Origin: Argopecten irradians
Taxonomy: Eukaryota; Mollusca; Bivalvia; Pectinida; Pectinidae
Length of the DNA: 64,000 nt
Direction: 5' to 3'
NCBI RefSeq assembly: GCF_041381155.1
Contig: NC_091135.1
Span: 59,742,567-59,806,566 of the forward strand
Shown here: in pieces, positions 12,356-49,931 of the stretch
Position numbering within the stretch: position 1 is the first letter of the stretch
Layout: every line of letters begins with the position of its first letter
Made by a program: the position numbers and the translations under genes
Notes under the pieces: generated by a model
What the model saw: only the letters and a program-made list of their open reading frames with translations
What the model was told of the DNA's origin: nothing
Database searches by the model: none

Positions 12356-12411
12356 ATACTCCAGGGGTGGATATCACGTCAGTGATAGTAACCCTTGGAG
12401 TATCGAAGATG
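12356..12411. mobile_element. Terminal fragment of the GGAGTATCGAGG inverted-repeat element
   Basis: A 56-bp piece with CTCCAGGGGTGGATATCACG and CCCTTGGAGTATCGAAGATG. It matches the terminus of the elements at 13,981-14,279 and 22,251-22,530. The terminus can itself fold, because CCAGGGGT pairs with ACCCYTGG. Confidence 0.7.
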
Positions 12412-12659
12412 TTTTGTGATATTTTCAAATTGCGTTGTTATACTCGGCACATACAGGTTATTGATAGTGTATATGTATCCAATATCTCCTTGTTTATTAT
12501 GTAATTTCTATAATATAATCATTTACTAGTATGTTTACATGCGAATCTGATTGATCTGCATCTAGTATATGTTGTACTTTATATTGATAAAAAGCCTATA
12601 AGAAGATAAACTTTTCTTATAAAACTTTATTTATTGTTATGTATGAAAGTGTAGTGACA

Positions 12660-13240
12660 TCCTTGATACTCCAGTGGTTACTGTCACTATCGTTATTTCA
12701 ACCATCCTCGATACTCCAGTGGATACTGTCACTATCGTTATATCAACCATCCTCGATACTCCAGTGGTTACTGTCACTATCGTTATATCAACCATCCTCG
12801 ATACTCCAGTGGTTACTGTCACTATCGCTATTTCAACCATCCTCGATACTCCAGTGGATACTGTCACTATCGTTATATCAACCATCCTCGATACTCCAGT
12901 GGTTACTGTCACTATCGCTATTTCAACCATCCTCGATACTCCAGTGGTTACTGTCACTATCGTTATATCAACCATCCTCGATACTCCAGTGGATACTGTC
13001 ACTATCGTTATATCAACCATCCTCGATACTCCAGTGGATACTGTCACTATCGTTATATCAACCATCCTCGATACTCCAGTGGTTACTGTCACTATCGCTA
13101 TTTCAACCATCCTCGATACTCCAGTGGATACTGTCACTATCGTTATATCAACCATCCTCGATACTCCAGTGGTTACTGTCACTATCGTTATATCCTATAA
13201 TGACAATGTTATTACCCCTAGAGTATCAATAATGATATAC
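12660..13240. repeat. 45-bp tandem array built from a transposon terminus
   Basis: Twelve copies of a 45-bp unit containing CCTCGATACTCCAGTGGTTA and TCACTATCGTTATATCAACC. The unit is the reverse complement of the terminus of the inverted-repeat family seen at 13,981 and 22,251. A divergent opposite-strand terminus (CCCCTAGAGTATCAATAATG) closes the array near 13,240, so it probably grew inside one element. Because 45 is a multiple of three, long open frames run through it on both strands. They are not genes. Confidence 0.9.
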
Positions 13241-13980: not shown

Positions 13981-14279
13981 CATCCTCGATACTCCAGGGG
14001 TTCTAATCACTTGCTATCTCTACACCCATGGACTCTCTCATAGTAAAACTGGAGGCAACAGAACCGGTAATTTAGTCATTTGATGCCGTATAACGGTACA
14101 CTGTGGTTGACTGTGTGGCTTTGATGTTAGGCGTCGCTCTCTCTGTAGTCTTCAAAGAAAATCTTTGCTAGCCTGTGATTGGTCAAATGGTTTCCGCTGA
14201 ACTACCTTCAATTTCACTATGAGACAGTCCAGGGGTGTAGAGATAGCAAGTGATCGGAACCCCTGGAGTATCGAGGATG
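13981..14279. mobile_element. Intact-looking MITE, 299 bp, reference copy of the GGAGTATCGAGG family
   Basis: The termini CATCCTCGATACTCCAGGGG and CCCCTGGAGTATCGAGGATG are inverted repeats. They extend inward for about 50 bp, including AGATAGCAAGTGAT on both sides. No coding capacity. It lies about 105 bp beyond the stop codon of the minus-strand M15-like gene. Related copies are at 22,251 and 33,546. Confidence 0.85.
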
Positions 14280-14379: not shown

Positions 14380-14385
14380 TTTATT
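14380..14385 (-). terminator. Poly(A) signal AATAAA overlapping the stop codon
   Basis: On the minus strand the stop TAA runs directly into TAAATTC, giving AATAAA. The 3' UTR would be only about 15-30 nt. Confidence 0.6.
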
Positions 14386-14548
14386 AGAAGTTACAATGAA
14401 TGTGACTGGTCTCATCTAGTGCGAATCCACCCATCGACCTACACTTGGCCATGATCTCTGCGTTCCTGGAGCTGGTTTGGATGTCTACAGCCGTACCCTT
14501 ATAGTGGGATGAACCACAGTGATGACACGCTCCCGCTATCTCATTCAC
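14384..14548 (-). CDS. Exon 7 of the SH3b/M15-like gene (zinc motif and stop)
   Basis: 55 codons from VNEIAGACHHCGSSHYKGTA to SHIHCNF and TAA. It holds all three putative zinc ligands. The first 21-27 bases and the acceptor before them are the source of the adjoining 57-bp satellite. Confidence 0.9.
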   Translation of the reverse strand: MNEIAGACHHCGSSHYKGTAVDIQTSSRNAEIMAKCRSMGGFALDETSHIHCNF

Positions 14549-17500
14549 CTGGCAAATAATAGCAATATGTGATAGTTAATAACAGGCTCCCACTATCTCA
14601 TTCACCTGTCAAACAATAGCAATATGTGATAGTTAATAACAGGCTCCCACTATCTCATTTACCGGTCAAACAATAGCAATATGTGATAGTTAATAACAGG
14701 TTCCCGCTATCTCATCCACATGTCAAACAATAGAAATATGTTATAGTTAATAACAGGCTCCCGCTATCTCATTCAGCTGTCAAACAATAGCAAAATGTGA
14801 TAGTTAATAACAGGCTCCCGCTATCTCATTCACCTGTCAAACAATAGCAATATGTGATAGTTAATAACAGGCTCCCGCTATCTCATTCACCTGTCAAACA
14901 ATAGCAATATGTGATAGTTAATAACAGGCTCCCGCTATCTCATTCACCTGTCAAACAATAGCAATATGTGATAGTTAATAACAGGCTCCCGCTATCTCAT
15001 TCAGCTGTCAAACAATAGCAAAATGTGATAGTTAATAACAGGCTCCCGCTATCTCATTCACCTGTCATACAATAGCAATGTTTGATAGTTAATAACAGGT
15101 TCCCGCTATCTCATTCACCTGTCAAACAATAGCAAAATGTGATAGTTAATAACAGGCTCCCGCTATCTCATTCACCTGTCAAACAATAGCAATATGTGAT
15201 AGTTAATAACAGGCTCCCGCTATCTCATTCACCTGTCAAACAATAGCAATATGTGATAGTTAATAACAGACTCCCACTATCTCATTCACCTGTCAAACAA
15301 TAGCAATCTGGATAGATAATAACACGCTCCCGCTATCTCATTCACCTGTCAAACAATAGCAATATGTGATAGTTAATAACAGGCTCCCGCTATCTCATTC
15401 ACCTGTCAAACAATAGCAATATGTGATAGTTAATAACAGACTCCCACTATCTCATTCACCTGTCAAACAATAGCAATCTGGATAGATAATAACACGCTCC
15501 CGCTATCTCATTCACCTGTCAAACAATAGCAATATGTGATAGTTGATAACAGGCTCCCGCTATCTCATTCACCTGTCAAACAATAGCAATATGTGATAGT
15601 TAATAACACGCTCCCGCTATCTCATTTACCTGGTAAACGATAGCAAGATGTGATAGTTAATAAACAGGCTACCACTATCTGATTCCCCTGTCAAACAATA
15701 GCAATATGTGATAGTTAATAACAGGCTCCCGCTATCTCATTCACCTGTCAAACAATAGCAATATGTGATAGTTAATAACACGCTCCCGCTTCTCATTTAC
15801 CTGGTAAACGATAGCAAGATGTGATAGTTAATAAACAGGCTACCACTATCTGATTCCCCTGTCAAACAATAGCAATATGTGATCGTTAATAACACGTTCC
15901 CACTATCTGATTCACCTGTCAAACAATAGCAATATGTGATAGTTAATAACAGGCTCCCGCTATCTCATTCACCTGTCAAACAATAGCAATATGTGATAGT
16001 TAATAACAGGCTCCCGCTATCTCATTCACCTGTCAAACGATAGCAATATGTGATAGTTAATAACAGGCTCCCGCTGTCTCATTCACCTGTCAAACGATAG
16101 CAATATGTGATAGTTAATAACAGGCTCCCGCTATCTCATTTACCTGTCAAACAATAGCAATATGTGATAGTTAATAACAGGTTCCCGCTATCTCATTTAC
16201 CTGGTAAACGACAGCAATATGTTATAGTTAATAACAGGTTCCCGCTATCTCATTTACCTGTCAAACAATAGCAATATGTGATAGTTAATAACAGGCTCCC
16301 GCTATCTCATTCACCTGTCAAACAATAGCAATATGTGATAGTTAATACAGGCTCCCGCTATCTCATTCACCTGTCAAACAATAGCAAGATGTGATAGTTA
16401 ATAACAGGCTCAAGCTATCTCATTTACCTGTCAAACAATAGCAATCTGGATAGTTAATAACACGCTCCCGCTATCTCATTCATTTGTCAAACAATAGCAG
16501 TATGTGATAGTTAATAACAGGCTCCCGCTATCTCATTCACCTGTCAAACAATAGCAATATGTGATATTTAATAACAAGCTCCCGCTATCTCATTCACCTG
16601 TCAAACAATAGCAATATGTGATAGTTAATAACAGGTTCCCGCTATCTCATCCACATGTCAAACAATAGAAATATGTTATAGTTAATAACAGGCTCCCGCT
16701 ATCTCATTCACCTGTCAAACAATAGCAATATGTGATAGTTAATAACAGGCTCCCCGCTATCTCATTCACCTGTCAAACAATAGCAAAATGTGATAGTTAA
16801 TAACAGGCTCCCACTATCTCATTCACCTGTCAAAAAATAGCAATATGTGATAGTTAATAACACGCTCCCGCTATCTCATTCACCTGTCAAACAATAGCAA
16901 TATGTGATAGTTAATAACAGGTTCCCGCTATCTCATTCACCTGTCAAACAATAGCAAAATGTGATAGTTAATAACAGGCTCCCGATATCTCATTCACCTG
17001 TCAAACAATAGCAATATGTGATAGTTAATAACAGGCTCCCGCTATCTCATTCACCTGTCAAAAAATAGCAATATGTGATAGTTAATAACAGCTCCCACTA
17101 TCTCATTCACCTGTCAAACAATAGCAATCTGGATAGATAATAACACGCTCCCGCTATCTCATTCAACTGTCAAACAATAGCAATATGTGATAGTTGATAA
17201 CAGGCTCCCTTCTCATTCACCTGTCAAACAAATAGTGATAGTTATAAGACTCCACTATCTATATTAACAGGCTCCCGATACGCTATCCTATTCATTCACC
17301 TGTCAAACAATAGCAATATGTGATAGTTAATAACCGCTCCCGCTATCTCATTCACCTGTCAAACAATAGCAATATGTGATAGTTAATAACAGGCTCCCGC
17401 TATCTCATTTACCTGTCAAACAATAGCAATATGTGATAGTTAATAAACAGGCTCCCACTATCTGATTCACCTGTCAAACAATAGCAATATGTGATAGTTA

Positions 17501-20500
17501 ATAACAGGCTCCCGCTATCTCATTTACCTGGTCAAACAATAGCAATATGTGATAGTTAATAACAGGCTCCGCTATCTCATTACCTGTCAAACGATAGCAA
17601 GATGTGATAGTTAATAACAGGCTCCCACTATCTGATTCACCTGTCAAACAATAGCAATATGTGATAGTTAATAACACGTCCCACTATCTGATTCACCTGT
17701 CAAACAATAGCAATATGTGATAGTTAATAACAGGCTCCCGCTATCTCATTCACCTGTCAAACAATAGCAATATGTGATAGTTAATAACAGGCTCCCGCTA
17801 TCTCATTCACCTGTCAAACGATAGCAATATGTGATAGTTAATAACAGGCTCCCGCTGTCTCATTCACCTGTCAAACGATAGCAATATGTGATCGTTAATA
17901 ACACGTTCCCACTATCTGATTCACCTGTCAAATAATAGCAATATGTGATAGTTAATAACAGGTTCCCGCTATCTGATTTACCTGGTAAACGACAGCAATA
18001 TGTAATAGTTAATAACAGGTTCCCGCTATCTCATTTACCTGTCAAACAATAGCAATATGTGATAGTTAATAACAGGTTCCCGCTATCTCATTTACCTGTC
18101 AAACAATAGCAATATGTGATAGTTAATAACACGCTCCCGCTATCTCATTCACCTGTCAAACAATAGCAAGATGTGATAGTTAATAACAGGCTCAAGCTAT
18201 CTCATTTACCTATCAAACAATAGCAATCTGGATAGTTAATAACACGCTCCCGCTATCTCATTCATTTGTCAAACAATAGCAGTATGTGATAGTTAATAAC
18301 AGGCTCCCGCTATCTCATTCACCTGTCAAACAATAGCAATATGTGATATTTAATAACAAGCTCCCGCTATCTCATTCACCTGTCAAACAATAGCAATATG
18401 TGATAGTTAATAACAGGTTCCCGCTATCTCATCCACATGTCAAACAATAGAAATATGTTATAGTTAATAACAGGCTCCCGCTATCTCATTCACCTGTCAA
18501 ACAATAGCAATATGTGATAGTTAATAACAGGCTCCCGCTATCTCATTCACCTGTCAAACAATAGCAATATGTGATAGTTAATAACAGGCTCCCACTATCT
18601 CATTCACCTGTCAAACAATAGCAATATGTGATAGTTAATAACAGGCTCCCGCTATCTCATTCACCTGTCAAACAATAGCAATATGTGATAGTTAATAACA
18701 GGCTCCCACTATCTCATTCACCTGTCATACAATAGCAATGTTTGATAGTTAATAACAGGTTCCCGCTATCTCATTCACCTGTCAAACAATAGCAATATGT
18801 GATAGTTAATAACAGGCTCCCGCTATCTCATTTACCTGTCAAACAATAGCAATATGTGATAGTTAATAACACGCTCCCGCTATCTCATTTACCTGGTAAA
18901 CGATAGCAAGATGTGATAGTTAATAAACAGGCTACCACTATCTGATTCCCCTGTCAAACAATAGCAATATGTGATCGTTAATAACACGTTCCCACTATCT
19001 GATTCACCTGTCAAACAATAGGAATATGTGATAGTTAATAACAGGCTCCCGCTATCTCATTCACCTGTCAAACAATAGCAATATGTGATAGTTAATAACA
19101 GGCTCCCGCTATCTCATTCACCTGTCAAACGATAGCAATATGTGATAGTTAATAACAGGCTCCCGCTGTCTCATTCACCTGTCAAACGATAGCAATATGT
19201 GATAGTTAATAACAGGCTCCCGCTATCTCATTTACCTGTCAAACAATAGCAATATGTGATAGTTAATAACAGACTCCCACTATCTCATTTACCTGGTAAA
19301 CGACAGCAATATGTTATAGTTAATAACAGGTTCCCGCTATCTCATTTACCTGTCAAACAATAGCAATATGTGATAGTTAATAACAGGCTCCCGCTATCTC
19401 ATTCACCTGTCAAACAATAGCAATATGTGATAGTTAATAACAGGCTCCCGCTATCTCATTTACCTGTCAAACAATAGCAATATGTGATAGTTAATAACAG
19501 GTTCCCGCTATCTCATTTACCTGTCAAACAATAGCAATATGTGATAGTTAATAACACGCTCCCGCTATCTCATTCATTTGTCAAACAATAGCAGTATGTG
19601 ATAGTTAATAACAGGCTCCCGCTATCTCATTCACCTGTCAAACAATAGCAATATGTGATATTTAATAACAAGCTCCCGCTATCTCATTCACCTGTCAAAC
19701 AATAGCAATATGTGATAGTTAATAACAGGTTCCCGCTATCTCATCCACATGTCAAACAATAGAAATATGTTATAGTTAATAACAGGCTCCCGCTATCTCA
19801 TTCAGCTGTCAAACAATAGCAAAATGTGATAGTTAATAACAGGCTCCCGCTATCTCATTCACCTGTCAAACAATAGCAAAATGTGATAGTTAATAACAGG
19901 CTCCCACTATCTCATTCACCTGTCAAACAATAGCAATATGTGATAGTTAATAACAGGCTCCCGCTATCTCATTCACCTGTCAAACAATAGCAATATGTGA
20001 TAGTTAATAACAGGCTCCAACTATCTCATTCACCTGTCATACAATAGCAATGTTTGATAGTTAATAACAGGTTCCCGCTATCTCATTCACCTGTCAAACA
20101 ATAGCAAAATGTGATAGTTAATAACAGGCTCCCGATATCTCATTCACCTGTCAAACAATAGCAATATGTGATAGTTAATAACAGGCTCCCGCTATCTCAT
20201 TCACCTGTCAAACAATAGCAATATGTGATAGTTAATAACAGACTCCCACTATCTCATTCACCTGTCAAACAATAGCAATCTGGATAGATAATAACACGCT
20301 CCCGCTATCTCATTCAACTGTCAAACAATAGCAATATGTGATAGTTAATAACAGGCTCCCGCTATCTCATTCACCTGTCAAACAATAGCAATATGTGATA
20401 GTTAATAACAGACTCCCACTATCTCATTCACCTGTCAAACAATAGCAATCTGGATAGATAATAACAGGCTCCCGCTATCTCATTCACCTGTCAAACAATA

Positions 20501-23500
20501 GCAATATGTGATAGTTGATAACAGGCTCTCCCGCTATCTCATTCACCTGTCAAACAATAGCAATATGTGATAGTTAATAACACGCTCCCGCTATCTCATT
20601 TACCTGGTAAACGATAGCAAGATGTGATAGTTAATAAACAGGCTACCACTATCTGATTCCCCTGTCAAACAATAGCAATATGTGATAGTTAATGACAGGC
20701 TCCCGCTATCTCATTTACCTGTCAAACAATAGCAATATGTGATAGTTAATAACACGCTCCCGCTTCTCATTTACCTGGTAAACGATAGCAAGATGTGATA
20801 GTTAATAAACAGGCTACCACTATCTGATTCCCCTGTCAAACAATAGCAATATGTGATCGTTAATAACACGTTCCCTACTATCTGATTCACCTGTCAAACA
20901 ATAGGAATATGTGATAGTTAATAACAGGCTCCCGCTATCTCATTCACCTGTCAAACGATAGCAATATGTGATAGTTAATAACAGGCTCCCGCTGTCTCAT
21001 TCACCTGTCAAACGATAGCAATATGTGATAGTTAATAACAGGCTCCCGCTATCTCATTTACCTGTCAAACAATAGCAATATGTGATAGTTAATAACAGGT
21101 TCCCGCTATCTCATTTACCTGGTAAACGACAGCAATATGTTATAGTTAATAACAGGTTCCCGCTATCTCATTTACCTGTCAAACAATAGCAATCTGGATA
21201 GTTAATAACACGCTCCCGCTATCTCATTCATTTGTCAAACAATAGCAGTATGTGATAGTTAATAACAGGCTCCCGCTATCTCATTCACCTGTCAAACAAT
21301 AGCAATATGTGATATTTAATAACAAGCTCCCGCTATCTCATTCACCTGTCAAACAATAGCAATATGTGATAGTTAATAACACGCTCCCGCTATCTCATTT
21401 ACCTGGTAAACGATAGCAAGATGTGATAGTTAATAACAGGCTCAAGCTATCTCATTTACCTGTCAAACAATAGCAATCTGGATAGTTAATAACACGCTCC
21501 CGCTATCTCATTCATCTGTCAAACAATAGCAATATGTGATAGTTAATAACACGCTCCCGCTATCTCATTCACCTGTCAAACAATAGCAATATGTGATAGT
21601 TAATAACAGACTCCCACTATCTCATTCACCTGTCAAACAATAGCAATATGTGATAGTTAATAACACGCTCCCGCTATCTCATTCACCTGTCAAACAATAG
21701 CAATATGTTACAGTTAATAACAGGCTCCCGCTATCTCATTTACCTGGTAAACGATAGCAAGATGTGATAGTTAATAACAGGCTCCCTATATCTCATTCAC
21801 CTGTCAAACAATAGCAATATGTGACAGTTAATAACACGCTCCCGCTATCTCATTTACCTGTCAAACAATAGCAATATGTGATAGTTAATAACACGCTCCA
21901 GCTATCTCATTCGCCTGTCAAACAATAGCAATATGTGATAGTTAATAACACGCTCCCGCCATCTCATTTACCTGTCAAACAATAGCAATATGTGACAGTT
22001 AATAACAGGCTCCCGATATCTCATTCACCTGTCAAACAATAGCAATATGTGATAGTTAATAACACGCTCCCGCTATCTCATTCACCTGTCAAACAATAGC
22101 AATATGTGACAGTTAATAACAGGCTCCCGATATCTCATTCACCTGTCAAACAATAGCAATATGTGATAGTTAATAACACGCTCCCGCTATCTCATTCACC
22201 TGTCAAACAATAGCAATATGTGATAGTTAATAACACGCTCCCGATACCTCCATCCTCGATGCTCCAGGGGTCACTATATCAATCCCTGGACTATCCTATA
22301 GTAAAACTGGATCACAGGCTTGCAGAGACTTCCTTTCAAGATTACAGAGAGAACACAGCCCGACTTCAAAGCCACACAGTCAACGACAGTGCACTGTTAG
22401 TCGATTCTTTTTATATACATCAAAGGACGTAATTCAGCTCAAATTACCTGCGTCTTATGTTGCTTTCAGTTTTACTGTGATACAGTTCAGGAGTAGATAT
22501 AATGAGTGAAGGTAACCCTTGGAGTATCGAGGATATAACGAGTGAAGGTAACCCCTGGAGTATCTAGGGTGACCCAGGGGTGAATATAACGAGTGACGGT
22601 AACCCCTGGAGTATCGAGGATATAACGCATGAAAGGTAACCCCTGGAGTATCGAGGATATAACGCATGAAAGGTAACCCCTGGAGTATCGAGAATATAAC
22701 GAGTGAAAGGTAACTCTTGGAGTATCGAGGATATAACGAGTGAAATGTAACCCCTGGAGTATCGAGGATATGACGAGTGAAGGTAACCCCTGGAGTATCG
22801 AGGATATAACGAGTGTGGGTAACCCCTGGAGTATCGAGGATATAACGAATGAAAGGTAACCCCTGGAGTATCGAGAATATAACGAATGAAGGTAACCCCT
22901 GCAGTATCGAGGATATAACGAGTGAAGGTAATCCCTGCAGTATCGAGGATATAACGAGTGAAGGTAACCCCTGCAGTATCAAGGATATAACGAATGAAAG
23001 GTAACCCCTGGAGTATAGAGGATATAATGAGTGAAGGTAACCCCTGGAGTATCGAGGATATAACGAGTGACGGTAACCCTTGGAGTATCGAGGATATAAC
23101 GCGTGAAAGGTAACCCCTGGAGTATCGAGAATATAACGAGTGAAAGGTAACTCTTGGAGTATCGAGGATATAACGAGTGAAAGGTAACCCCTGGAGTATC
23201 GAGGATATGACGAATGAAGGTAACCCCTGGAGTATCGAGGATATAACGAGAGAAGGTAACCCCTGGAGTATCGAGGGTGACCCAGGGGTGGATATTTCGA
23301 GTGACAGTAACCCCTGGAGTATCGAGGATATAACGAGTGAAGGTAACCCCTTGAGTATCGACGGTGACACAGGGGTGGATATAACGAGTGACGGTAACCC
23401 CTGGAGTATCGAGGATATAACGAGTGAAAGGTAACCCCTGGAGTATCGAGGATATAACGAGTGAAAGGTAACCCCTGGAGTATCGAGGATATAACGAGTG

Positions 23501-26500
23501 AAGGTAACCCCTGGAGTATCGAGGATATAACGAGTGACGGTAACCCTTGGAGTATCGAGGATATAACGCGTGAAAGGTAACCCCTGGAGTATCGAGAATA
23601 TAACGAGTGAATTTAAGCCCTGGAGTATCGAGGATATAACGAGTGAAAGGTAACCCCTGGAGTATCGAGGATATGACGAATGAAGGTAACCCCTGGAGTA
23701 TCGAGGATATAACGAGTGAAGGTAACCCCTGGAGTATTGAGGGTGACCCAGGGGTGGATATTACGAGTGACGGTAACCCCTGGAGTATCGAGGATATAAC
23801 GAGTGAAGGTAACCCCTTGAGTATCGAGGGTGACCCAGGGGTGGATATAACGAGTGACGGTAACCCCTGGAGTATCGAGGATATAACGAGTGAAAGGTAA
23901 CCCCTGGAGTATCGAGGATATAACGAGTGAAAGGTAACCCCTGGAGTATCGAGGATATAACGAGTGAAGGTAACCCCTGGAGTATCGAGGATATAACGAG
24001 TGAAGGTAACCCCTGAAGTATCGAGGATATAATGAGTGAAGGTAACCCCTGGAGTATCGAGGATATAACGAGTGACGGTAACCCCTGGAGTATCGAGGTT
24101 ATTACGAGTGAAGGTAACCCCTGGAGAATTGAGGGTGACCCAGGGGTGGATATAACGAGTGACGGTAACCCCTAGAGTATCGAAGATATAACGCGTGAAA
24201 GGTAACCCCTGGAGTATCGAGAATATAACGAGTGAAAGGTAACCCTTGGAGTATCGAGGATATAACGAGTGAAAGGTTACCCCTGCAGTATCGAGGATAT
24301 AACGAGTGAATGTAACCCCTGGAGTATCGATGATATAACGAGTGAAGGTAACCCCTTGGGTTCGAGGATATAACGAGTGAAGGTGACCCCTGCAGTATCG
24401 AGGATATAACGAGTGAAGGTAACCCCTGCAGTATCGAGGATATAACGAGTGAAGGTAACCCCTGCAGTATCGAGGATATAACGAGTGAAGGTAACCCCTG
24501 CAGTATCGAGGATATAACGAGTGAAGGTAACCCCTTGGCTTCAAGGATATAATGAGTGAAGGTAACCCCTTGGCTTCAAGGATATAATGAGTGACGGTAA
24601 CCCCTGGAGTATCGAGGATAAAACGAGTGAAGGTAACCCCTGGAGTATCGAGGATAAAACGAGTGAATTTAAGCCCTGGAGTATCGAGGATATAACGAGT
24701 GAAGGTAACCCCTGGAGTATCGAGGATATATCGTGAAGGTAACCCCTGGAGTATCGAGGTATAATGAGTGAAGGTAACCCCTGGAGTATCGAGGATATAA
24801 CGAATGAAGGTAACCCCTGAAGTATCGAGGATATAACGAGTAAAGGTAACCCCTGGAGTATCGAGGATATAACGAGTGAAGGTAACCCCTTGGGTTCGAG
24901 GATATAATGAGTGACGGTAACCCCTGGAGTATCGAGGATAAAACGAGTGAAGGTAACCCCTGGAGTATCGAGGATAAAACGAGTGAATTTAAGCCCTGGA
25001 GTATCGAGGATATAACGAGTGAAGGTAACCCCTGGAGTACCGAGGATATAACGAGTGAAGGTAACCCTTGGAGTATCGAGGATATAATGAGTGAAGGTAA
25101 CCCCTGGAGTATCGAGGATATAACGAGTGAAGGTAACCCCTGCAGTATCGAGGATATAACGAGTGAAGGTAACCCCTGCAGTATCGAGGATACGCTCTCT
25201 TATTCATCTGACAAACAACAGTAATGCAATCGTTAATAAAACTGGAGAAAATTGTATGAGAGAAACTGATGCATCTGAAAGTATTGCACAACAACTTTTT
25301 GGTATTTTATCTCTAAGATTTGAAATATGTTACAATATACTCCAAGAAAACTTTTTATAAACCAACCTTATACATTGATTAGCAATAAGGTAAAAGTGTG
25401 TTAAGTACGTAGATTTAAGATAATATCATCTACACAAAGTAACAAAAAAAAAAGAAAAATAATAATGATCACTTTGACAAATAATGCTCTAATAAGCAAA
25501 GTTTTCTTTCTGTTAAAAACCTTAGTCCTGATATTAACCACTGGAGTATCAAATGTTTCGTGTTCTACTGTCAGTGTGGACGTATTGTGTTCCTACACAT
25601 CAAACAACAACAGTTCAGTGGTCCGCCATATTTATTACTCAATTATTACTTCACACAAGCAGTTACAAAAATGGTACACCGAACCAATGTTACAGTGCTT
25701 CAAACGAACCTACGACACATCCCCCTTTCTTTAGATATTATATTTAACTGTCCATAGATATGATATGGGGAATAAAATAAACTTTATCAATATGTAATTG
25801 AGTCCATGTGTGCTTAACTTTCTTCACTATGGATGAAACTAAATATATTAATTATTGTTCCAATAAATTTCTAAGCAATTACATATTTAAACGTTAACAT
25901 TATTATTTCTAAAATAATCTTTCAGTTCTCAATTGGCCATGTCCACTTTAAAGTCTGTAAACACTTTTAACTAATATCAATCAACTGATTTAACTAGGAA
26001 AACACTTTGAACTAGTCAAACATGACTAAAAGAACATATAAACTAATGCACACTAATCTGGCACACGAAATCTTGCAGATGTTTCGGTTTCTCAACACGT
26101 CTTCCAACTCTTGTCGTCACAGGTGTACTTGGGGTCGGACTAGGAACTCTCACAGGGATTTGTGATGGTTTTGGAGAAGTGTCTCGTGTCTCTCGTGTAA
26201 CCAGTTCCATTTGTTTGTCTGGTGCGACATTTACACTTTCTGATGGAGTTTCAACAACTGGTTTTGAACTATCAGTATCTGAACCTAGAATAACTGGTGT
26301 ACTAACAGGCTTCCATTTTTCCTGGGTCTTTCTGAGGTGACGACGATTACGTCTGTATTCCCTTCCATCCTCTGTTCTCACGTTATATGATCTTATGTCG
26401 GTTTGGTCTGTAACTACGGCTTTTGTCCATAGCTTAGATCTACCCACTGGTTTTATCCTAACCACATCTCCTCCTTTCAAAATACCTAGTTCTTTCACAC

Positions 26501-29500
26501 CGTGATTGTAGTTATTCTGCTGTTTTTCTTTCCTTTGTGTTATTTTGTCTTTTACGTCCTTTGAATTCAACGACTGTGGTTCTAACAATTTCGTTGATGT
26601 TGGTAACAAAGTTTTTTGTCCTTCGACCGAATAGACGTTGTGACGGTGAATAGTTCACTCCTTCACGTGGCGTATTTCTCCAGTCTAGTAGAGCTAGAAA
26701 TGGGTCTTTAGCGTCACGGATAGATTTCTCCATGATTCGTTTAGACGTTTTTACAGCGTTTTCAACTCTTCCGTTTGACTGTGGGTACGCCGGTGAGCTG
26801 GTAATGTGCTCAAAATCGTAACTTTCAGCAAATTTGTCAAATTCATGACTCTGAAACGGCGGTCCGTTGTCGGAAAAGATAACATCTGGTATCCCATGTC
26901 TCGCGAAGTGCGCCTTCAATTTTCCAATTACCTCTTTACCAGTTTTGTCGAACAACCTGTCTATCTCGAAGTAATCGGAAAAATAGTCTACTGTCACCAA
27001 GTAGGCTTTCTGATTTAGGTCAAAGAGATCACAACCTAGCTTTGACCAAGGTCTGTCAGGTACCTCGTGGCTTATTAACGGTTCTTTCGGCTGATCGATA
27101 CATCTTGAGTTACATATCTCACATTTACTGACAAAGTTCTCCACGTCTTTATACATTCCTGGCGAATACAAAGATTCTCTCATTCTCCGAATGCATCCCT
27201 GTATTCCTAGGTGCGAGTGTGCTGCCTCAATGATATTTTCTCTCTCACTCTCCGGCACAACTACTCGGTCACCTTTGAAAACTAGACCATTCTGAACGAC
27301 AAGTTCATCGCGGAATGTAAAGTAGACATGAAGCTTGTTATTAAGGGTGTCTTTAGTATCCGGCCATCCTTGGAGAATTACCGTTTTGAGTTGCCTGAGT
27401 ACCTCGTCGGATTCTGTAGCGGCTTGCAGCCTGGCGTATCTCGACTCTGTGATTGGTAGTATCACATTGATGTATTCAGTCTCGCGCTCGGTTTCAGACC
27501 GATTTTCACTGTTTTCCTTGAGATATGCTCTACTGAGCGCGTCGGCCATGTACATTGTCGGACCCGGTCTGTACTGAATTTCAAGATTGAATTTCTGCAA
27601 CCGAAGTAACATTCTCTGGAGTCGCTTTGGAGCACTCAGGAGATTTTTTCTACAGATAATCTCCAGCGGCTTATGGTCCGATTCTACTAAAACTTTACGT
27701 CCATAGGTATATGTCTCAAACCTCTCTACTCCGAACACCACAGCCAACAGTTCCTTTTCGATTTGAGCATAACGCTCTTCCGTCTTAGTCAAGGACCTCG
27801 AAGCATAACATATCGGGTGTCCATCCTGCATTAGACATGCACCTAACCCTGTCTGAGACGCATCGCATTGTAAGACGGTATCCTTTGACGGATCAAAGAA
27901 TTTTAACACTGGAGCTGCTGTTAGTGCGTTTTTCACTTTTTCAAATGCTGTGTCATGTTCACAATCCCATACAAACTCGGTATCATTTCTGATTAAGTGT
28001 CTTAGAGGTGTTGTGATTTCGGACATGTTTGGAGTGAATTTCTGGACATAGTTCGTCATTCCCAGCAATCTTTGCACATCCCCTTTGTTTGCTGGTTTAG
28101 GCATTTCTTTAATCGCTCGCGTTTTTTCGGGGTCGATTTGTAAACCTTCTCTCGAGATTATGTGTCCCATATACGCTACTCGCGATAGTCTTAACTTCAG
28201 TTTGTCTCTGTTGAGCTTAAGATTCTGCTCGTTACACCTTTGGATGAACGCTTTCAAGTTGATCTCATGATCTGTCAACGCATCCTCATCCTTCTCTCCT
28301 GAACCGTAAATCAATATATCATCGTGTATGGCCTTGACACCAGTCAAACCTTCCAAACACTCATCGATTCTTCGCTGGAATTCCTCGGGTGCCACCGATA
28401 TGCCAAAAGGCATTCTTTTCCAACGAAATCTTCCGAAAGGGGTCCCAAACGTTGTTAACAAACTACTCGCTTCATCGAGTTTAACATGCCAGAAGCCATT
28501 TTTTGCATCTGCCACAGTGAATACCTTGGCGTTAGCTAAGTCTGGCAACACATCATCCAATACTGGCATCGAGTAGTCATTTCGTTTGAGCGCTTTGTTT
28601 AACGGTTGAGGGTCTATACACAATCTGATTTTTCCTGACGGTTTTGTAACAACGACTAACGACGAAATCCAATCTGTCGGAACTGTGACACGTTCGAGCA
28701 CGTCCTTTTTCACCAAACGGTCCAATTCGTCCTTGACCTTTGGTTTTGTTGCTACAGGTAGTTTTCTCACTGGTATTTTCGTCGGTTTAACAGTTTCATC
28801 AATTTCTAAATGAAGTTCTCCTGGCAAACAACCTTCACCTTCAAACACACCTGTTTTATCAAGGTCACTGATACTTATTTCCTTCGTATCGACCAGGTTT
28901 ACGACATCATCACCCACATTTCTCTTCTGTATGTTATGGGATTGAATTCTGATCAAATCCATTTCCTGTGTGTCAGCTGACCCTAGGATAGGGTGAACAT
29001 CTCCCTGTACGATCACATATTCAACCATATATTTCTCCTTTGTTCTCGGATTGATGGTTTCCAATGTTCTCTTTCCAACAGGTTTAGTTGTGGTTTTGTT
29101 GAACATCTGTAGCTTTCTGTTATAGCTTTTCAGTTTCTTAAATTGACGATCATGACATGCACGTGCATACACGCGGGCTGGTAGGACATTAACTGATGAA
29201 CCACTATCTAGTTGGAACTCAATGTTTTTCTTGTTGATCTTCAACAATGCATTGATTCGCTTAGGTTTCACACCTAGTGCATTTACTTCTTCAACAGAGA
29301 GAACATATAATCGCTTTCCTCTGATTCGTCACTTACATAGTGCACGCGTCGATGACCTCCTCCACGCGGTTTGTGTTTTCTTGGACGTTCAGGCTTACGC
29401 TCGCCTTTACATTTTACCTCAAAATGTCCTTTATCACCACATTTTCGGCATTTACGTCCATATGCAGGGCAACTTTCCCTCTTCCTGTCGTGTTTTCGAC

Positions 29501-32500
29501 CACACGAATTACACGTCGCGTCGCTGGATCGGTCATATTTCTGTTCGGACTTATGTGGAGCTGTTTTACGCTTCATATAATGTACTTCCTCATTCATTTC
29601 TTTCATTTGGACAGTAATCTTTTCATTAGTCCGGCAAATGTCAATACATTTTTTTAAGTCCAGTTTTCTCTCTTGGAGTAGTTTCTTTCTCGTACCGTTG
29701 TTTTCAAGACCTATTACGATTCTGTCGCGTATCATTTCATCCTCAAGCGTATCGTACTTGCAGGTTTTAGCCAGGGATCGGAGTGCGGGACATCTTCATC
29801 AATAGACTCATGTTTACCTTGCTCCCTTTTGTTGAACATGTATCTTTCATAGATGTCATTTGTTTGACCAACACAGAAGTCTTCAAATTTCTTTAACACC
29901 TTTTCAATGTCATCTTTATCTTCTGCGGATTCAAATGTTAGACCATCATAGACTTGGAGTGCTTCAGCACCTATACATGTCAATAATGTAGCATTTCTTA
30001 GCTTCTTTGATTTGTTTATGAGTCCTGTGGCAACTTCATAGTTGTCCCATACTCGCTGAAATTTCTTCCAGTTCACAGATAAATTACCCTTCATTTCTAG
30101 TTTTGTTGGAAAAGGTAAGTTTGACGGGACATGAATTAACAACGGTTGGACTTGACTTGCACCACCTTCAGTACCTTGTGGGGCCTCGGCGCTTCCACCA
30201 ACGTTTTGATTAACCATTGACATCTTAAAACAAGTTTGTTTTCACAAAAGTTTATACAGATTCAAAGTTTATTCACGTTGTCCGGCCTCATAGTCCTCGG
30301 TGAAATTTGGCGGGAACCGCATGGTCTGGGCACCTCATGTTTACAACGCTCCGTGCCTCCATGTCGATTATCTTCCTGGGCTCACGATCGATTTTTACGA
30401 TAGTAGTGTCACTCACCTTACCATCGAAAACCATTCTGACACCATGTTTCGTGTTCTACTGTCAGTGTGGACGTATTGTGTTCCTACACATCAAACAACA
30501 ACAGTTCAGTGGTCCGCCATATTTATTACTCAAATATTACTTCACACAAGCAGTTACAAAAATGGTACACCGAACCAATGTTACAGTCCTGATATTAACC
30601 ACTGGAGTATCAAAGATATAATGAGTATTTTATCTCTAAGATTTGAAATATGCTACAATATACTCCAAGAAAACTTTTTATAAACCAGCCTTATATATTG
30701 ATTAGCAATAAGATAACAGTGTGTTAAGTACGTAGATTTAAAATAATATCATCTACACAAAGTAACAAAAAAAAAAAAAAAGATCACTTTGACAAATAAT
30801 GGTCTAATAAGCAAAGTTTTCTTTCTGTTCAAAACCTTATTATAGATATATAATTAGCCATGCCTTTGGTTTGATGGTTATGTAATACCTTGACCAGGAT
30901 GTTGTTTACCTGTACCATTCATCGAGCTCACCTGTAATTACCTGGCCGCGGGCAATTTGCTGTTCGGTGGACTATATCGGGTATTTGCTATTGTCTTACT
31001 GTCAATCAGGTTAGGACATCCGTTGATTGGATCGTGATTTGAATTATGGAAACCCCGTACATCTATGCTCTAGGTTTTTTATTGTCACCTCCAATTTTAA
31101 AATGAAGATGTAAAAGCAAATGGAAATAAATATACCTGATCATACCTAGGAATATATATTACATACACACACACATATATATGTCGTACATAGGTAAAAC
31201 AAAAATGGTTTTAAGAACTATTTCAACTACAGGTTTAACCTTAAAAATTAATCCACTCTAGTACTGTAATTACGGAATCGTGGCATATAGCAATCTTCCG
31301 TAATTTCTAAGGTATCAGTAAAAATTATGAGGATGTATTTTCACCGTTTCGAATCTAAATGTACATGTGTAGTCATACAAGAAGGGCTACAACATTATCA
31401 CGCTAAATATACTTATTTAAATATCACTTAGTATATTTTTAAAAAAGTACATAATATAATATCTATTTATAAAGCCTGTATACAAGTAATTTCAATTTTC
31501 ATTTGAACACTTTACGTCGTTACTTTTTGGATTATAAGATAAATTTTCATATATCATACTATTAAATCTCGGTATGATATACAAAACGGTCGATAATGAA
31601 TCGACTATTTTAAGGATTTAGTATACTTTTTAAATAATAAATTTGAATTTACACTTAAACTGTAATTTAGGAACATATATCAGAAATACCATTGATGTAT
31701 TTCTGCTTTTTAGTAAACGTTATGGATAAAGTTTCAAAGGCAACAATAAAGATATACATATTATTTCGGTATAAGTTCGGTACTGTTACTCCAATATCAC
31801 ATAACTGATAACCGTCCACATTTTATTTTTACTCAAAAACTGTCCCGTGTTTGCATCGTTATAGCAGAAGTTTGAAATAAAAACACGTATTCTAGATATA
31901 TTCATAAATACCTACATCATAAAGCCAGAATAACCATTTACTAGAAAAACTCAAATCGTAGATCTAACGTATACGTATATATGCTGTATGCATGTATAGT
32001 ACTTCGCTTACCTTGTGTAGCCGCGGACTACTCTGACATCACACGACCACGTGACCACCTAGCTCATTATCTCTGAACCGTAGTCGACACTACCCGTAAA
32101 TCACGACCAAAACCAACCGATAGCGCTAAAAGCTAGGCGATTTGTTAGGTGGGACTTAATTTTTCATTCATCCTAAGCAATATCCTGACGTATTATCAAA
32201 AAAAAAAAATTTGGCTGCACAAATCCTTTAATGGTATTTACTGTGCAAGGGTTCATGTCAGAATGCCTACATTTGATGTAAAAACTCGTACAAATTTATA
32301 CACTACATGTTACTATCACAACATTTTGATGTATATTTTATCAACGTAATTAGAATTAGAATTCATTTTATTTCTGTCGTCATGAAGAATCCACTTACAT
32401 GCATGCTTCCTGCTTTACCTAGATCGTAAATAAATTGTAACAGAGTCCTACTGAGGCACACGTGTCCCCCAGGTGTATTGGTTCCGCATAGATTGCAGTA

Positions 32501-35006
32501 ATAACTGAAAAATAACACAAAGTAATTACAAAACTATTATTAAAATTTAAACTCGACAAAGCAAATATATAAATACATAAATTTACAAGTTTATTCCTAT
32601 GAATTACAATGAACCCACCAAGGCGTTACCGCCAAACCAAACGGCATGTTAGGAAACACTGAACGCGCTTACCAAAGAGGTGACAGTGTCGACCAATTTC
32701 TCCGTCATTTTTGAAAGTACATTAAGTCTACGGGTATTATTTTTGCTGAAAACCCCAATCTTTTACCAAATACCATTATTACGACATGTAAGACCATACC
32801 TTGACCTAGAGGCTCCTAATCCTCTACATGTATCCCGGATATTGTTATAGGCATAAGCGTTGTCATGGTTACCAGATGGATGACGATCCCACAAAGTTAT
32901 TCGCCCTGCATTGTGAAGTTGTAGAATTTCGCATGCCAGATTTTTAGCAGTTGGGTCGGAACATGCAGAGGCTCCAGCTGTAAAACGGTAACAAAGTATA
33001 TTTCTATAATTGTAATGCGATTCCGTAATACTAACATTGTATTAAAATGACTTAGATAAATTCCAGGATTCGTTTTCTTTATCAAACTTTTGCATTACTC
33101 GAGAACTATTCATAAATTCAAAAACTTACGCAATAGTTTTGGTCCATTTAACATTTACTTCAAAAAGATCAGTCAAGTAAACACCAAAGAACATAAGATA
33201 ATAACTTCCTTCCATAAAGACTAATATTTATTGTCATTGGACATGGAAACAATGTGCTTACCATTACATAAAGAAACATCAGACGCGATGTTTAGATAAT
33301 TCCCTGCAACCCAAAGGTTCTACAAAGACAGAAATCTTTTGATAATCCGTGACAACATTACAGTCCTTTTGATAATCTGGCTGAACTAACCAAATACCAA
33401 ACGGAGTAATTTTGGCTTGAAAAAGAAATAGTAACCTAAGTATTGATTGAACTGGAGACAAACAATCAAGACCGAGATGCTTTCAAACAATTCATATATG
33501 ATATTTCTATTTATTTAGATCAAACGCTACCGAGTGATGTACAGACACCCTCGATATTCAGGGATAACTAGCACTGACATTATATCCACCCATGGACAGT
33601 TGCATGGCATAGCAAAATATGAAGACTCTGTGTGCGACAATAGTTGTAAGAGATAGATTAGTTCTTTGCTGTCACAAAGAGAATCAAATAACGGTACATC
33701 GTTTGGCTTAGCAGTTGAGCGTCGCTCTCAGTAAATATTCAAAGAAGGAAGTCCTCTGCAAGCCAGTTTTGGTCAGTTTTTTTCTCCTGATCTGCCTTTA
33801 GTTTTACTATGACATATTCCTGCGTTGGATATTACGACAGTGATAACAACCCTTGGAATATTGGGGATGGTAGAGAAATTTGATTAAATGTATTAAACTG
33901 CTCTGAGAGCTAATGTTTTGATTTTGCAGTTATTTTCTAAATGCCGTGATTTTAACTGCAGTTAGCGATGTATTTGGTCATATTACCTCTCTGTTGACGT
34001 TTTGAAGCTGGTACCAAACGTAATCGTCTTTTGTAAGGATTCCGCCATGGAACTTGTAGCAATGGTTCACTGACAAGGACGCATGTACCGGCTCATGGAG
34101 GCCAGCTGCCGGGGAAGACAGTTAAAACATGTGCAATCGAACAAGCTTACGATATCAATTACAAACGCTGTATAGTATACATGTACTTTGTTTACATGAC
34201 TTACTTGTACGTGATCAAGCACAAGACCATCTTCGCAGAACCAGACTACATCTTCGCTAGGCTTCAAATCATAATATTGACGTTATCAGAAGCCTTGGCC
34301 AGCTAAGATGGCACAAGACATGTATGGCTTATCATGACCTCAATATCTATCATTAGGATTGGTAGGTGTTGTTGAATCACGAAAATAGATTCCATTTTGT
34401 TTACATTTCAAATACAATTTAAAAACCACAGCCCCACTCTCCTTTGCGAGTGTGTTCCATGAATACACGAAAATCATATTTCACTTTGTGTGCGCCATCA
34501 AATTTCATTTCACGCACTGTAGATGATCTGAAATTGTGTTTTTATGAAACATACCATAAATATGCTATATATACTAGCATTACTGATATTGACGAAATAC
34601 TTTGTATACGAATAGTGATCGTCCATACTCTAGAACCAACATATCACAATGACCTTACCTTTGTATTGTCATGGCTAGCTATAAAGCCATTTGCTAATTG
34701 TGGCGCATTGTTATGTCTTGTTTGTCTTTACCACGAATATGTTTTTCTCTCGATTTTTAGTGTCGCATATATTGTGTGCAAAATAAAGCGATTTGCGATA
34801 TTCCGCCTACCAAGTTTCATTCTACATCACAATATTATATTAGTAAATTAGGAAAAGGCAATCGCAGTAGCGTACTTACGTCCCGAGTGAGCGTTAACGT
34901 TGGAGGTAGTAAGACAGAAACACGTGCCAGACACTGGGTGCTGGCCCGAGATATTGGCCAAACCCCCTCTTACAACCAGACAGGCGACTAGCAGGTACAG
35001 ATACAT
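14384..35006 (-). CDS. Secreted SH3b-like plus M15/LAS-type zinc peptidase-like protein, seven exons
   Basis: Assembled from splice sites on the minus strand, the gene encodes about 261 residues. Exons in transcript order are 35006-34880, 34251-34205, 34091-33987, 33319-33262, 32977-32800, 32504-32399 and 14548-14384, and phases match at every junction. Residues 1-17 are a hydrophobic signal peptide (MYLYLLVACLVVRGGLA). Residues about 24-115 resemble an SH3b domain (VNAHSG, CYKFHGGIL, WYQLQN, LWVAGNYL). The C-terminal domain is Cys-rich and has S220-x-H222-xx-G-x-A-x-D229, then E253 and H256/H258: the zinc-ligand and catalytic layout of M15/LAS peptidases, known for D-Ala-D-Ala carboxypeptidases and endolysins. 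A secreted peptidoglycan-cleaving role in immunity or digestion is inferred. The exon 2 acceptor is the least certain border. The last intron is 17.85 kb. Confidence 0.85.
14549..22248 (-). repeat. 57-bp satellite (about 135 copies) derived from a splice acceptor
   Basis: The monomer, read on the minus strand (the transcript strand), runs TGTTATTAACTATCACATAT, TGCTATTGTTTGACAG, then GTGAATGAGATAGCGGGAGC. This is the end of intron 6 and the first codons of exon 7. The monomer next to the exon is continuous with the real acceptor. Variants carry GTAAAT instead of GTGAAT, CCAG instead of ACAG, or lose the AG. Blocks of several monomers recur in the same order (for example around 16,440, 18,220, 19,560 and 21,200), showing higher-order duplications of a few kilobases. 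No coding function. Confidence 0.95.
22251..22530. mobile_element. MITE of the GGAGTATCGAGG family inserted in the 57-bp satellite
   Basis: The left terminus CATCCTCGATGCTCCAGGGG follows directly on a broken 57-bp monomer. The right terminus, near 22,500, passes into the 36-bp array. The interior is related to the 13,981 copy in reverse orientation (GTAAAACTGG, shared GCTTGC...CTTTC region). Confidence 0.8.
22505..25192. repeat. 36-bp satellite made of amplified MITE termini (about 74 copies)
   Basis: The unit is about GGTAACCCCTGGAGTATCGA plus GGATATAACGAGTGAA, 36-37 bp. Some units also carry GACCCAGGGGTGGATATAAC, the inner half of the MITE terminus. Lengths divisible by three produce spurious open frames of up to 521 codons on the minus strand. 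Confidence 0.95.
25193..25240. repeat. Diverged orphan 57-bp monomer beyond the 36-bp array
   Basis: CGCTCTCTTATTCATCTGAC...CGTTAATAA aligns with the satellite monomer but is far more diverged than any copy at 14.5-22.2 kb. It appears to be the other half of the monomer into which the MITE inserted. Confidence 0.65.
25298..25523. repeat. Left copy of a ~215-bp direct repeat flanking the LTR element
   Basis: The sequence TATTTTATCTCTAAG...GTTTTCTTTCTGTT recurs at about 30,628-30,838 with a few differences, mainly in an A-run. A 30-base segment containing CCACTGGAGTATCAAA (25,524-25,553) recurs at 30,586-30,615, so the element is bracketed by a longer host repeat. Confidence 0.8.
25554..25695 (-). 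repeat. End repeat (3' LTR side) of the Ty3/gypsy element
   Basis: It begins TGTTTCGTG on the plus strand and is nearly identical to 30,445-30,586. Confidence 0.85.
30445..30586 (-). repeat. End repeat (5' LTR side) of the Ty3/gypsy element
   Basis: It matches 25,554-25,695 with one difference seen. The primer-binding site abuts its inner end at 30,434-30,444. Confidence 0.85.
30628..30838. repeat. Right copy of the ~215-bp direct repeat flanking the LTR element
   Basis: Near-identical to 25,298-25,523. Both copies share the A-rich tract followed by GATCACTTTGACAAATAATG. Confidence 0.8.
30840..32398. other. Remainder of intron 6, no gene seen
   Basis: AT-rich sequence. The only local feature is a GC-richer patch at 32,010-32,110 with a CACGTG E-box, TGACATCA and, on the minus strand, CAAG|GTAAGC. 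It could be a first exon or an enhancer, but nothing coding follows. Confidence 0.5.
32399..32504 (-). CDS. Exon 6 of the SH3b/M15-like gene
   Basis: Encodes YYCNLCGTNTPGGHVC and LLQFIYDLGKAGSMH up to donor CAT|GTAAGT. If the donor were not used the frame would end 11 codons on, just after an AATAAA. A short form lacking the zinc motif is therefore possible. Confidence 0.85.
32800..32977 (-). CDS. Exon 5 of the SH3b/M15-like gene
   Basis: 58 full codons with split codons at both ends. It encodes the linker and the start of the peptidase-like region, including ACEILQLHNAGRITLWD and DNAYAYNNIRDTCRG. Acceptor TTTTACAG, donor GTATGG. Confidence 0.85.
33262..33319 (-). CDS. Exon 4 of the SH3b/M15-like gene
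   Basis: Encodes NLWVAGNYLNIASDVSLCN between acceptor TTTGTAG and donor GTAAGC. WVAGNYL is the typical last strand of SH3b-like domains. Confidence 0.85.
33546..33870. mobile_element. Diverged MITE of the GGAGTATCGAGG family in intron 3
   Basis: The left end CCCTCGATATTCAGGGATAA and right end CCCTTGGAATATTGGGGATG are inverted-repeat relatives of the 13,981 termini. The interior includes TTTAGTTTTACTATGACA, as in other copies. More diverged, hence older, than the 13,981 copy. Confidence 0.7.
33987..34091 (-). CDS. Exon 3 of the SH3b/M15-like gene
   Basis: 35 codons including NHCYKFHGGILTKDDYVWYQ, the core strands of the SH3b-like domain. Phase 0 at both ends. The acceptor is the AG of CATGAG. 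An alternative CAG 16 bases upstream would break the frame. Confidence 0.75.
34205..34251 (-). CDS. Exon 2 of the SH3b/M15-like gene
   Basis: Encodes VVWFCEDGLVLDHVQ and ends at donor GTAAGT. The acceptor ...GCGAAG was chosen because it alone keeps the phase and avoids stops. Its pyrimidine tract is poor, so the border is uncertain. Confidence 0.55.
34880..35006 (-). CDS. Exon 1 of the SH3b/M15-like gene (signal peptide)
   Basis: The ATG at 35,006 opens 42 codons plus one base, up to the donor GTAAGT. The hydrophobic N-terminus is followed by SGTCFCLTTSNVNAHSG. A TATA-like sequence lies about 36-42 bp upstream of the ATG. Confidence 0.85.
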
Positions 35007-44700: not shown

Positions 44701-44732
44701 CCATCACTTTTACAGCGTAGTCCTTATCCAGC

Positions 44733-44917
44733 AGTCACCTAAACCCAGCTGTTTCCTATCAGACTTGCAGCAGTCACCTAAACCCAGCTGTTTCCTATCA
44801 GACTTGCAGCAGTCACCTAAACCCAGCTGTTTCCTATCAGACTTGCAGCAGTCACCTAAACCCAGCTGTTTCCTATCAGACTTGCAGCAGTCACCTAAAC
44901 TCAGCTGTTTCCTATCA
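44733..44917 (-). repeat. 39-bp tandem repeat starting at the ZNF507-like stop codon
   Basis: Five copies of a 39-bp unit containing CAGCTGTTTCCTATCAGACT on the plus strand. On the coding strand the first unit contains the end of the open frame (CAAGTCTGA), so the stop codon itself is inside the repeated unit. Confidence 0.9.
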
Positions 44918-49852: not shown

Positions 49853-49931
49853 GTCTCTACAAGCTCCATTACAGCTTATGTCAGGCCCAATTCATTTCAC
49901 ATCTGTGTTGTACACATCTGCAGTTGGACCC
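49853..49931 (-). other. 5' UTR part of the ZNF507-like coding exon
   Basis: Bounded by an acceptor at 49,932-49,933 (CTTTTTAG on the minus strand). The non-coding first exon was not identified. A GC-box/CCAAT region at 52,325-52,357 is a candidate promoter. Confidence 0.6.

What the first reader, a model, noticed from the sequence alone, without database searches (positions are those of the whole stretch)
14528..22248. A 7.7-kb satellite made of about 135 tandem copies of a gene's own splice acceptor
Seen directly: the 57-bp monomer, read on the transcript strand, is the end of intron 6 plus the first bases of exon 7 of the SH3b/M15-like gene, including TTTGACAG followed by GTGAATGAGATAGCGGGAGC. 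The array abuts the real acceptor at 14,549. Established: splicing machinery usually selects an AG near a functional branch site. Inference: the transcript must pass over or use more than 100 near-identical decoy acceptors. Use of an upstream one would encode VNEIAGACY and then a stop, removing the zinc-binding region. Array length could thus tune the ratio of full-length to truncated secreted protein.
Basis: partly seen in the sequence, partly recalled or inferred. Interest (0 to 1): 0.88.

Follow-up and report, generated by a model that had tools for sequence, protein, structure and literature searches.

The report
Gene's splice acceptor repeated ~135 times
In what looks like an animal gene for a secreted, hedgehog-like protein, the short signal that marks where the last exon begins has been copied head-to-tail about 135 times just in front of the real one, which offers a natural test of how cells choose one splice site among many near-identical copies, although no RNA data were available to see what the cell actually does.

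Summary
A 57-bp array (14,525-22,250, minus strand, 136 units including two partial) repeats one gene's own 3' splice-site module: 33 nt of intron end (TATTAAC branch-like motif, CAG) plus the first 24 nt of the last coding exon; the real acceptor lies at its end. I rebuilt the gene: six coding exons, consistent phases, 250 aa. A bacterial homologue aligns unbroken across the last junction, so the exon start is real and the satellite was copied from the gene. Of 134 decoys, 125 keep AG, 113 keep AG|GT, 101 keep branch motif, AG and GT; all 134, read in the exon frame, stop after at most 39 residues. Decoy AGs look neither purged nor preserved, so I read the array as a nearly neutral minisatellite, the real site being chosen by last-exon definition, with some leakage (inferred). 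Closest precedent: the human ABCA7 VNTR, a repeated donor. Length tuning is untested and, by that analogy, doubtful.

The parts
14525..22250 (-). 57-bp tandem array, 136 units (134 complete) of the gene's own 3' splice-site module
   Evidence: TRF; unit-by-unit alignment
14549..14581 (-). real acceptor module of the last intron: TATTAAC at 14,581-14,575, AG at 14,550-14,549
   Evidence: sequence; unit 135 begins at 14,605
   Evidence: gene model; weak HH_signal/M15_3 hits below Pfam cut-offs; bacterial homologue
14525..14548 (-). 24 nt of coding sequence shared by exon F and the units
14380..14385 (-). AATAAA overlapping the stop codon, marking F as probable 3'-terminal exon
   Evidence: motif role recalled
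32800..32977 (-). exon D
33262..33319 (-). exon C (NLWVAGNYLNIASDVSLCN)
33987..34105 (-). exon B
34880..35006 (-). exon A, from the start codon, with a hydrophobic leader; 5' UTR not determined
25193..25239 (-). probable relic of an older unit (branch motif, AG, first 15 exon nt), 38/47 aligned bases identical to the consensus plus a 2-nt gap
   Evidence: simulated p about 5e-4; a short-word blastn gave only E 5
22251..25192 (-). palindromic, MITE-like element whose end has become a 36-bp array; lies between relic and array

Best explanation
The array is an intronic minisatellite born from the gene itself. Shown by sequence: a 57-bp stretch with branch-like motif, weak pyrimidine tract, AG and the first 24 coding bases was repeated in tandem, with repeated multi-unit blocks; an old, diverged unit at 25,193-25,239 lies beyond a mobile-element-like insertion and probably marks the former outer edge. 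Inferred: the transcript is spliced mostly from exon E to the last acceptor, because F is probably the 3'-terminal exon and terminal-exon definition (acceptor plus poly(A) signal about 165 nt away) favours the acceptor nearest the poly(A) signal; a minority of transcripts leak to upstream units in 57-nt steps, giving long last exons or 57-nt inserts, both with an early stop and without the H, D and H residues. The array's effect on fitness is small, so neutral unequal exchange sets its length.
For: Unit = gene's acceptor plus exon start, 134 complete units at 95.7% mean identity. Direction gene-to-satellite: a bacterial protein aligns across the E|F junction, so this exon start is old coding sequence; outside the array only the relic stands out in the window. 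Block amplification: runs of 3-4 identical neighbouring units at offsets of 3, 23, 31, 54, 83 and 86 units. Neutral pattern: 0.875 vs 0.879 distinct substitutions per site in exonic and intronic parts, 16/24 vs 21/33 variable sites; AG intact 93.3%, with 22 of 56 dinucleotides less intact. Last-exon context: AATAAA at 14,385. The real site's pyrimidine content (0.65) lies within the decoys' range (0.53-0.71, mean 0.60), so position rather than strength would have to discriminate. Precedent for tolerance: an ABCA7 VNTR allele of 9,711 bp made of donor copies.
Against: No RNA, population or relative-species data were at hand; use of the real acceptor is inferred. The first decoys are transcribed about 7.7 kb before the real one, and co-transcriptional splicing could commit to them. 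If decoys leaked much, selection might remove AGs near the exon: two of the three nearest decoys are indeed dead (hypergeometric p 0.012, chosen after looking), which could mean that leakage matters. Per-copy variability is higher in the exonic part (5.8% vs 3.1%), although this vanishes for substitutions when distinct alleles are counted. The relic got only E 5 in a short-word blastn.
Confidence: 0.6

Rival explanations
1. Isoform tuning: decoys are used at a sizeable rate, and array length sets the ratio of full-length to truncated secreted protein.
For: 125 of 134 decoys keep AG, 101 keep branch motif, AG and GT. All 134 decoy readings stop after at most 39 residues, before the H/D/H residues. 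If the array is kept as part of the last exon, the stop lies after the last junction, so classical junction-dependent decay would spare the mRNA (recalled).
Against: No sign of selection to keep the acceptors. In ABCA7, retention of a repeat unit did not change with array length.
Confidence: 0.1
2. Recursive ladder: because exon F begins with GTGAAT, most unit boundaries are AG|GT, the layout of a ratchet point. Splicing to a decoy rebuilds a donor, so each mistake can be undone by splicing onward until the last exon, which has no acceptor after it.
For: 113 of 134 decoys are AG|GT; 83 of 135 junctions read CAG|GTGAAT and 29 CAG|GTAAAT. With recalled vertebrate weights these score 8.15 and 8.70, within the gene's own donors (6.18-9.48). 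Recursive sites are juxtaposed 3' and 5' sites around AG/GT in long introns (PMC6110457 passages). In the fly gene kuz a weak rebuilt donor could be chosen at a later step despite stronger ones (PMC8605326 passages).
Against: After joining to exon E the rebuilt donor is CAT|GTGAAT, score 4.86, weaker than the next unit's donor; by donor competition (PMC8605326) this predicts inclusion of a 57-nt exon with a stop rather than skipping. GT at the unit start is intact in 88.1% of units, below the 94.8% median (13 of 56 dinucleotides are less intact), so donors are not preserved. The EJC suppresses rebuilt sites (PMC8184009). G at donor position +5 is missing in the common forms.
Confidence: 0.1
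3. Damaged gene: decoys capture most splicing and the gene is effectively switched off or makes only truncated protein.
For: First-transcribed decoys have much the same signals as the real site; the intron has grown to about 17.8 kb with a Ty3-type retrotransposon reading frame and two arrays.
Against: All six coding exons are open, with consistent phases and GT-AG introns, and exon F keeps its H/D/H residues.
Confidence: 0.15
4. Assembly artefact inflates copy number.
For: Copy number of long arrays is error-prone; no reads could be checked.
Against: 62 distinct sequences among 134 units with repeated blocks, plus a diverged relic.
Confidence: 0.05

Closest known systems
ABCA7 intron 18 VNTR (human), PMC5954066
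   Same: A tandem repeat that begins at the gene's own splice site, each unit repeating it; alleles of several kb; splicing to a neighbouring unit was seen (passages read).
   Different: There the donor is repeated (25-bp unit, GT at its start). Here the acceptor, with branch-like motif and 24 coding bases (57-bp unit), is repeated in front of a probable last exon.
Recursive splice sites / ratchet points (Drosophila, mammals), PMC6110457 and PMC8605326 (passages read)
   Same: AG|GT boundary in a long intron; acceptor followed at once by a donor; next donor about 50 nt on.
   Different: The introns described in those passages hold separate sites, generally with strong donors; here 113 of 134 AG|GT units stand in tandem, with weaker donors, and there is no RNA evidence.
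EBV W repeats (recalled, not read here)
   Same: Tandem units that each carry splice sites.
   Different: Kilobase units with real exons and viral function.
Hedgehog N-domain / peptidase M15_3
   Same: HY.G.AVD and HIHC in exon F.
   Different: Scores below family cut-offs; the rest of the protein has no Pfam hit above cut-off.

Membership tests
VNTR built from a gene's own splice site (ABCA7 type) | Repeat unit includes the functional splice site of the adjoining exon | tested here: met
   The AG and start of exon F lie in the array's end; that the site functions rests on the gene model and homologue
VNTR built from a gene's own splice site (ABCA7 type) | Copy number varies among individuals | not testable with these tools
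   one assembly only
VNTR built from a gene's own splice site (ABCA7 type) | Repeat alters splicing of its gene | not testable with these tools
   no RNA data
Recursive splice sites | AG|GT juxtaposition in a long intron | tested here: met
   113 of 134 decoys; intron 14,549-32,398
Recursive splice sites | Strong rebuilt donor | tested here: not met
   CAT|GTGAAT 4.86 vs gene donors 6.18-9.48, weights recalled
Recursive splice sites | Splicing intermediates or lariats | not testable with these tools
   no RNA data
Recursive splice sites | Conservation of the site between species | not tested
   no relative's genome held (no genome for this window)
Hedgehog N-domain / peptidase M15_3 | Pfam score above curated cut-off | tested here: not met
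   17.2 vs 22.1 and 15.9 vs 23.2 bits with exon F alone; 13.0 and 12.4 bits with the whole protein
Hedgehog N-domain / peptidase M15_3 | H...D and H zinc-ligand pattern | tested here: met
   alignment to Sonic hedgehog, E 0.087, weak; bacterial homologue; ligand role recalled
SH3b domain in the N-terminal half | Pfam hit | tested here: not met
   0 families for residues 1-101; resemblance recalled only

The most novel reading that the evidence does not exclude
The array is a ladder of more than 100 consecutive recursive splice sites: since the gene's exon happens to start with GTGAAT, most copies of the acceptor are also donor-like, so wrong splicing is self-correcting and the intron is removed in many 57-nt-register steps. 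This would explain how a gene survives over 100 decoy acceptors, and would be the densest natural ratchet known to me.
Probability: 0.1. Interest if true: 0.88.

Novelty: new variant of a known kind. Interest (0 to 1): 0.6.

Why it matters
How the spliceosome picks one acceptor among equals is usually studied with a few engineered sites (recalled). Here a genome offers 134 near-identical copies of one gene's acceptor, with branch-like motif and exon start, in order and in front of the real one, with natural knock-outs (9 lost AGs). Counting junctions per unit would directly measure first-come against nearest-to-exon choice, terminal-exon definition and re-splicing. Practically, short-read RNA mapping and gene prediction are likely to fail at such loci. 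In print I found one comparable case, with repeated donors (ABCA7). Nine completed searches of the held library listed no acceptor version that I recognised, but I judged nearly all papers from titles and abstract starts, several lists were cut (for example 15 of 1,296), and that library lacks most subscription papers.

Tried and rejected
Satellite first, exon captured later: rejected, because the exon's start is old coding sequence in a bacterial homologue. An additional exon at 34,261-34,205: tried, gave stops and a broken frame; dropped when A joined directly to B gave a full frame. Copies outside the array: only the relic stood out (score 42; the next tiles scored 27, one of them overlapping the relic's own surroundings; 2494 tiles); 20 simulated 56-kb backgrounds with the window's dinucleotide frequencies gave maxima of 25-36; a short-word blastn had given the relic only E 5.0. 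Selection on acceptors: looked for and not found. Relatives of the protein: none in phages; 8 pattern matches, none confirmed, in viral contigs; 1 confirmed of 27 in prokaryote genomes (its E-value is relative to the candidates only); 0 NCBIfam families; 2 weak PHROGs, not used; further weak Pfam hits not used (DUF7835, Zn_ribbon_PaaD, ox_reductase_C, Ogg-HhH). Unit DNA in viral contigs: 0 exact matches to a 43-base part. Dog MCHR2 VNTR: passages seen, contains a T-box site, not a splice-site repeat; rejected as precedent. Mytilus paper: passages only, an SH3b domain with a PGRP, not this gene. Insertion-site duplication of the element: the copy at 13,981-14,279 has 8 of 9 matching flanking bases, but at the array only 5 of 9 match (compared by eye), so that step is weak.
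Full report
OBSERVATION. Tandem Repeats Finder reports an array at 14,525-22,250, period 57, 135.3 copies. A wrap-around alignment on the minus strand splits 14,522-22,250 into 136 units, 134 complete. Mean identity to the consensus is 95.7%, 62 of 134 sequences are distinct and 18 equal the consensus. Runs of three or four identical neighbouring units recur at offsets of 3, 23, 31, 54, 83 and 86 units, so I infer that the array grew partly by copying blocks.

GENE. On the minus strand I built six coding exons: A 35,006-34,880, B 34,105-33,987, C 33,319-33,262, D 32,977-32,800, E 32,504-32,399, F 14,548-14,384. All five introns are GT-AG, phases agree and the product is 250 residues. An earlier try with another exon failed. 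The first residues look like a signal peptide (inspection only). The N-terminal half looks like an SH3b domain to me, but Pfam gives no hit. Exon F gives weak, below-cut-off hits to the hedgehog N-domain (E 0.0044) and peptidase M15_3 (E 0.014); with the whole protein these fall to E 0.089 and 0.18. The 20 solved-structure matches are all hedgehog proteins, best E 0.087. One prokaryotic relative was confirmed of 27 candidates: a Tessaracoccus protein, 31/93 identical (E 2e-9 relative to the candidates only). Its gene runs through the E|F junction without a break (GKAGSMH|VNEIAGACHH against GYNNSYR|VTSILGCDHS), so exon F begins at 14,548 and its first codons are older than the array. I conclude that the satellite was copied from the gene.

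ANATOMY OF A UNIT. The consensus unit holds TATTAAC with its last A 27 nt before the final G of the AG (role as branch site inferred), a weak pyrimidine tract, CAG, and 24 nt of exon. Of 134 decoys, 125 keep AG, 118 keep GT next to it, 113 keep AG|GT, 121 keep TTAAC in place and 101 keep all three. Across 135 junctions including the real one, 83 read CAG|GTGAAT and 29 CAG|GTAAAT. So most unit boundaries are an acceptor fused to a donor-like sequence, the layout of recursive splice sites (PMC6110457, passages). The real site is not clearly stronger than the decoys: pyrimidines 0.65 against 0.53-0.71, mean 0.60; the gene's other four acceptors have 0.59-0.76. All 134 decoy readings in the exon frame stop after at most 39 residues; 53 give VNEIAGACY exactly.

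HISTORY. A diverged unit lies at 25,193-25,239, 38 of 47 aligned bases identical plus a 2-nt gap; 20 simulated 56-kb sequences gave maxima of 25-36 against its 42, fitted p about 5e-4, whereas a short-word blastn gave only E 5.0. Between it and the array lies a palindromic element (22,251-25,192), one end of which has become the 36-bp array. The relic ends at unit base 15 and the array starts at unit base 7, so one unit may have been split by the insertion with a 9-base target duplication; another copy of the element has 8 of 9 matching flanks, but here only 5 of 9 match (by eye), so this step is weak.

SELECTION. Per-copy variability is higher in the exonic part (5.8%) than in the intronic part (3.1%), but distinct substitution alleles per site are equal (0.875, 0.879; 1.21 and 0.94 with deletions), and 16/24 against 21/33 sites vary. 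AG is intact in 93.3% of units, median of the 56 dinucleotides 94.8%, 22 of them less intact; GT at the unit start is intact in 88.1%, 13 less intact. Acceptors are thus neither purged nor kept, and the donor-like GT is if anything below the median, which speaks against a selected ladder. Two of the three decoys nearest the exon have lost AG (p 0.012, chosen after looking), a hint that the nearest decoys may do harm.

MECHANISM. AATAAA overlaps the stop of F, so F is probably the last exon, and last-exon definition (recalled) should favour the acceptor nearest the poly(A) signal. I think most splicing goes to 14,549, with leakage upstream. Leakage would give long last exons, or 57-nt inserts when the next unit's donor is used; both contain an early stop. 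The recursive reading is attractive, because a decoy rebuilds a donor, but the rebuilt CAT|GTGAAT scores only 4.86 with recalled weights, against 8.15-8.70 for the next unit's donor; donor competition (PMC8605326, passages) then predicts inclusion of a unit, and the EJC restrains rebuilt sites (PMC8184009, abstract and one section). The same paper's kuz result, where a weak rebuilt donor was chosen at a later step, leaves the ladder open.

PRECEDENT. The nearest case I found is the human ABCA7 VNTR: a 25-bp unit beginning with the exon 18 donor GT, one allele of 9,711 bp; retention of one unit was about 2% of transcripts and did not change with length, whereas skipping of exon 19 rose with length (PMC5954066, passages). 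The present array is the acceptor counterpart. Nine completed literature searches listed no acceptor-type array that I recognised, judged mostly from titles and abstract starts of cut lists; one search concerned the protein.

LIMITS. No RNA, no other individual, no relative's genome and no reads were available; no genome is held for the window, and that it is an animal is my inference from its introns, zinc-finger gene and retrotransposon. Use of any splice site is inferred.

Noticed in passing
22,251-25,192; 13,981-14,279; about 33,535-33,870: Copies of an imperfectly palindromic, MITE-like element (a piece also at 12,360-12,412); in one copy the terminal repeat has become a 2.7-kb array of 36-bp units.
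   Followed up: partly
12,658-13,194: 45-bp array, 11.9 copies, sharing the same element end; several reading frames stay open through the array, on both strands.
   Followed up: no
26,512-29,328 (-): Ty3-type retrotransposon reading frame (RT, RNase H, integrase domains; 'Ty3-type' from recall) inside the same intron.
   Followed up: partly
44,915-49,891 (-): 1658-residue C2H2 zinc-finger reading frame with a 60-bp coding repeat (47,910-48,146) and a 39-bp x5 repeat reaching its 3' end (44,729-44,923).
   Followed up: partly
38,610-40,571 and 36,170-36,889: Tandem arrays with 324-bp (6.1 copies) and 156-bp (4.6 copies) units upstream of the gene.
   Followed up: no
14,662 and 14,719: Two of the three decoys closest to the real acceptor have lost their AG.
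   Followed up: partly
L001:332-1282: Tessaracoccus protein carrying a domain like that of this gene's exons E and F, after what look like peptidoglycan-binding repeats (label recalled, not scanned); a possible clue to gene transfer.
   Followed up: no
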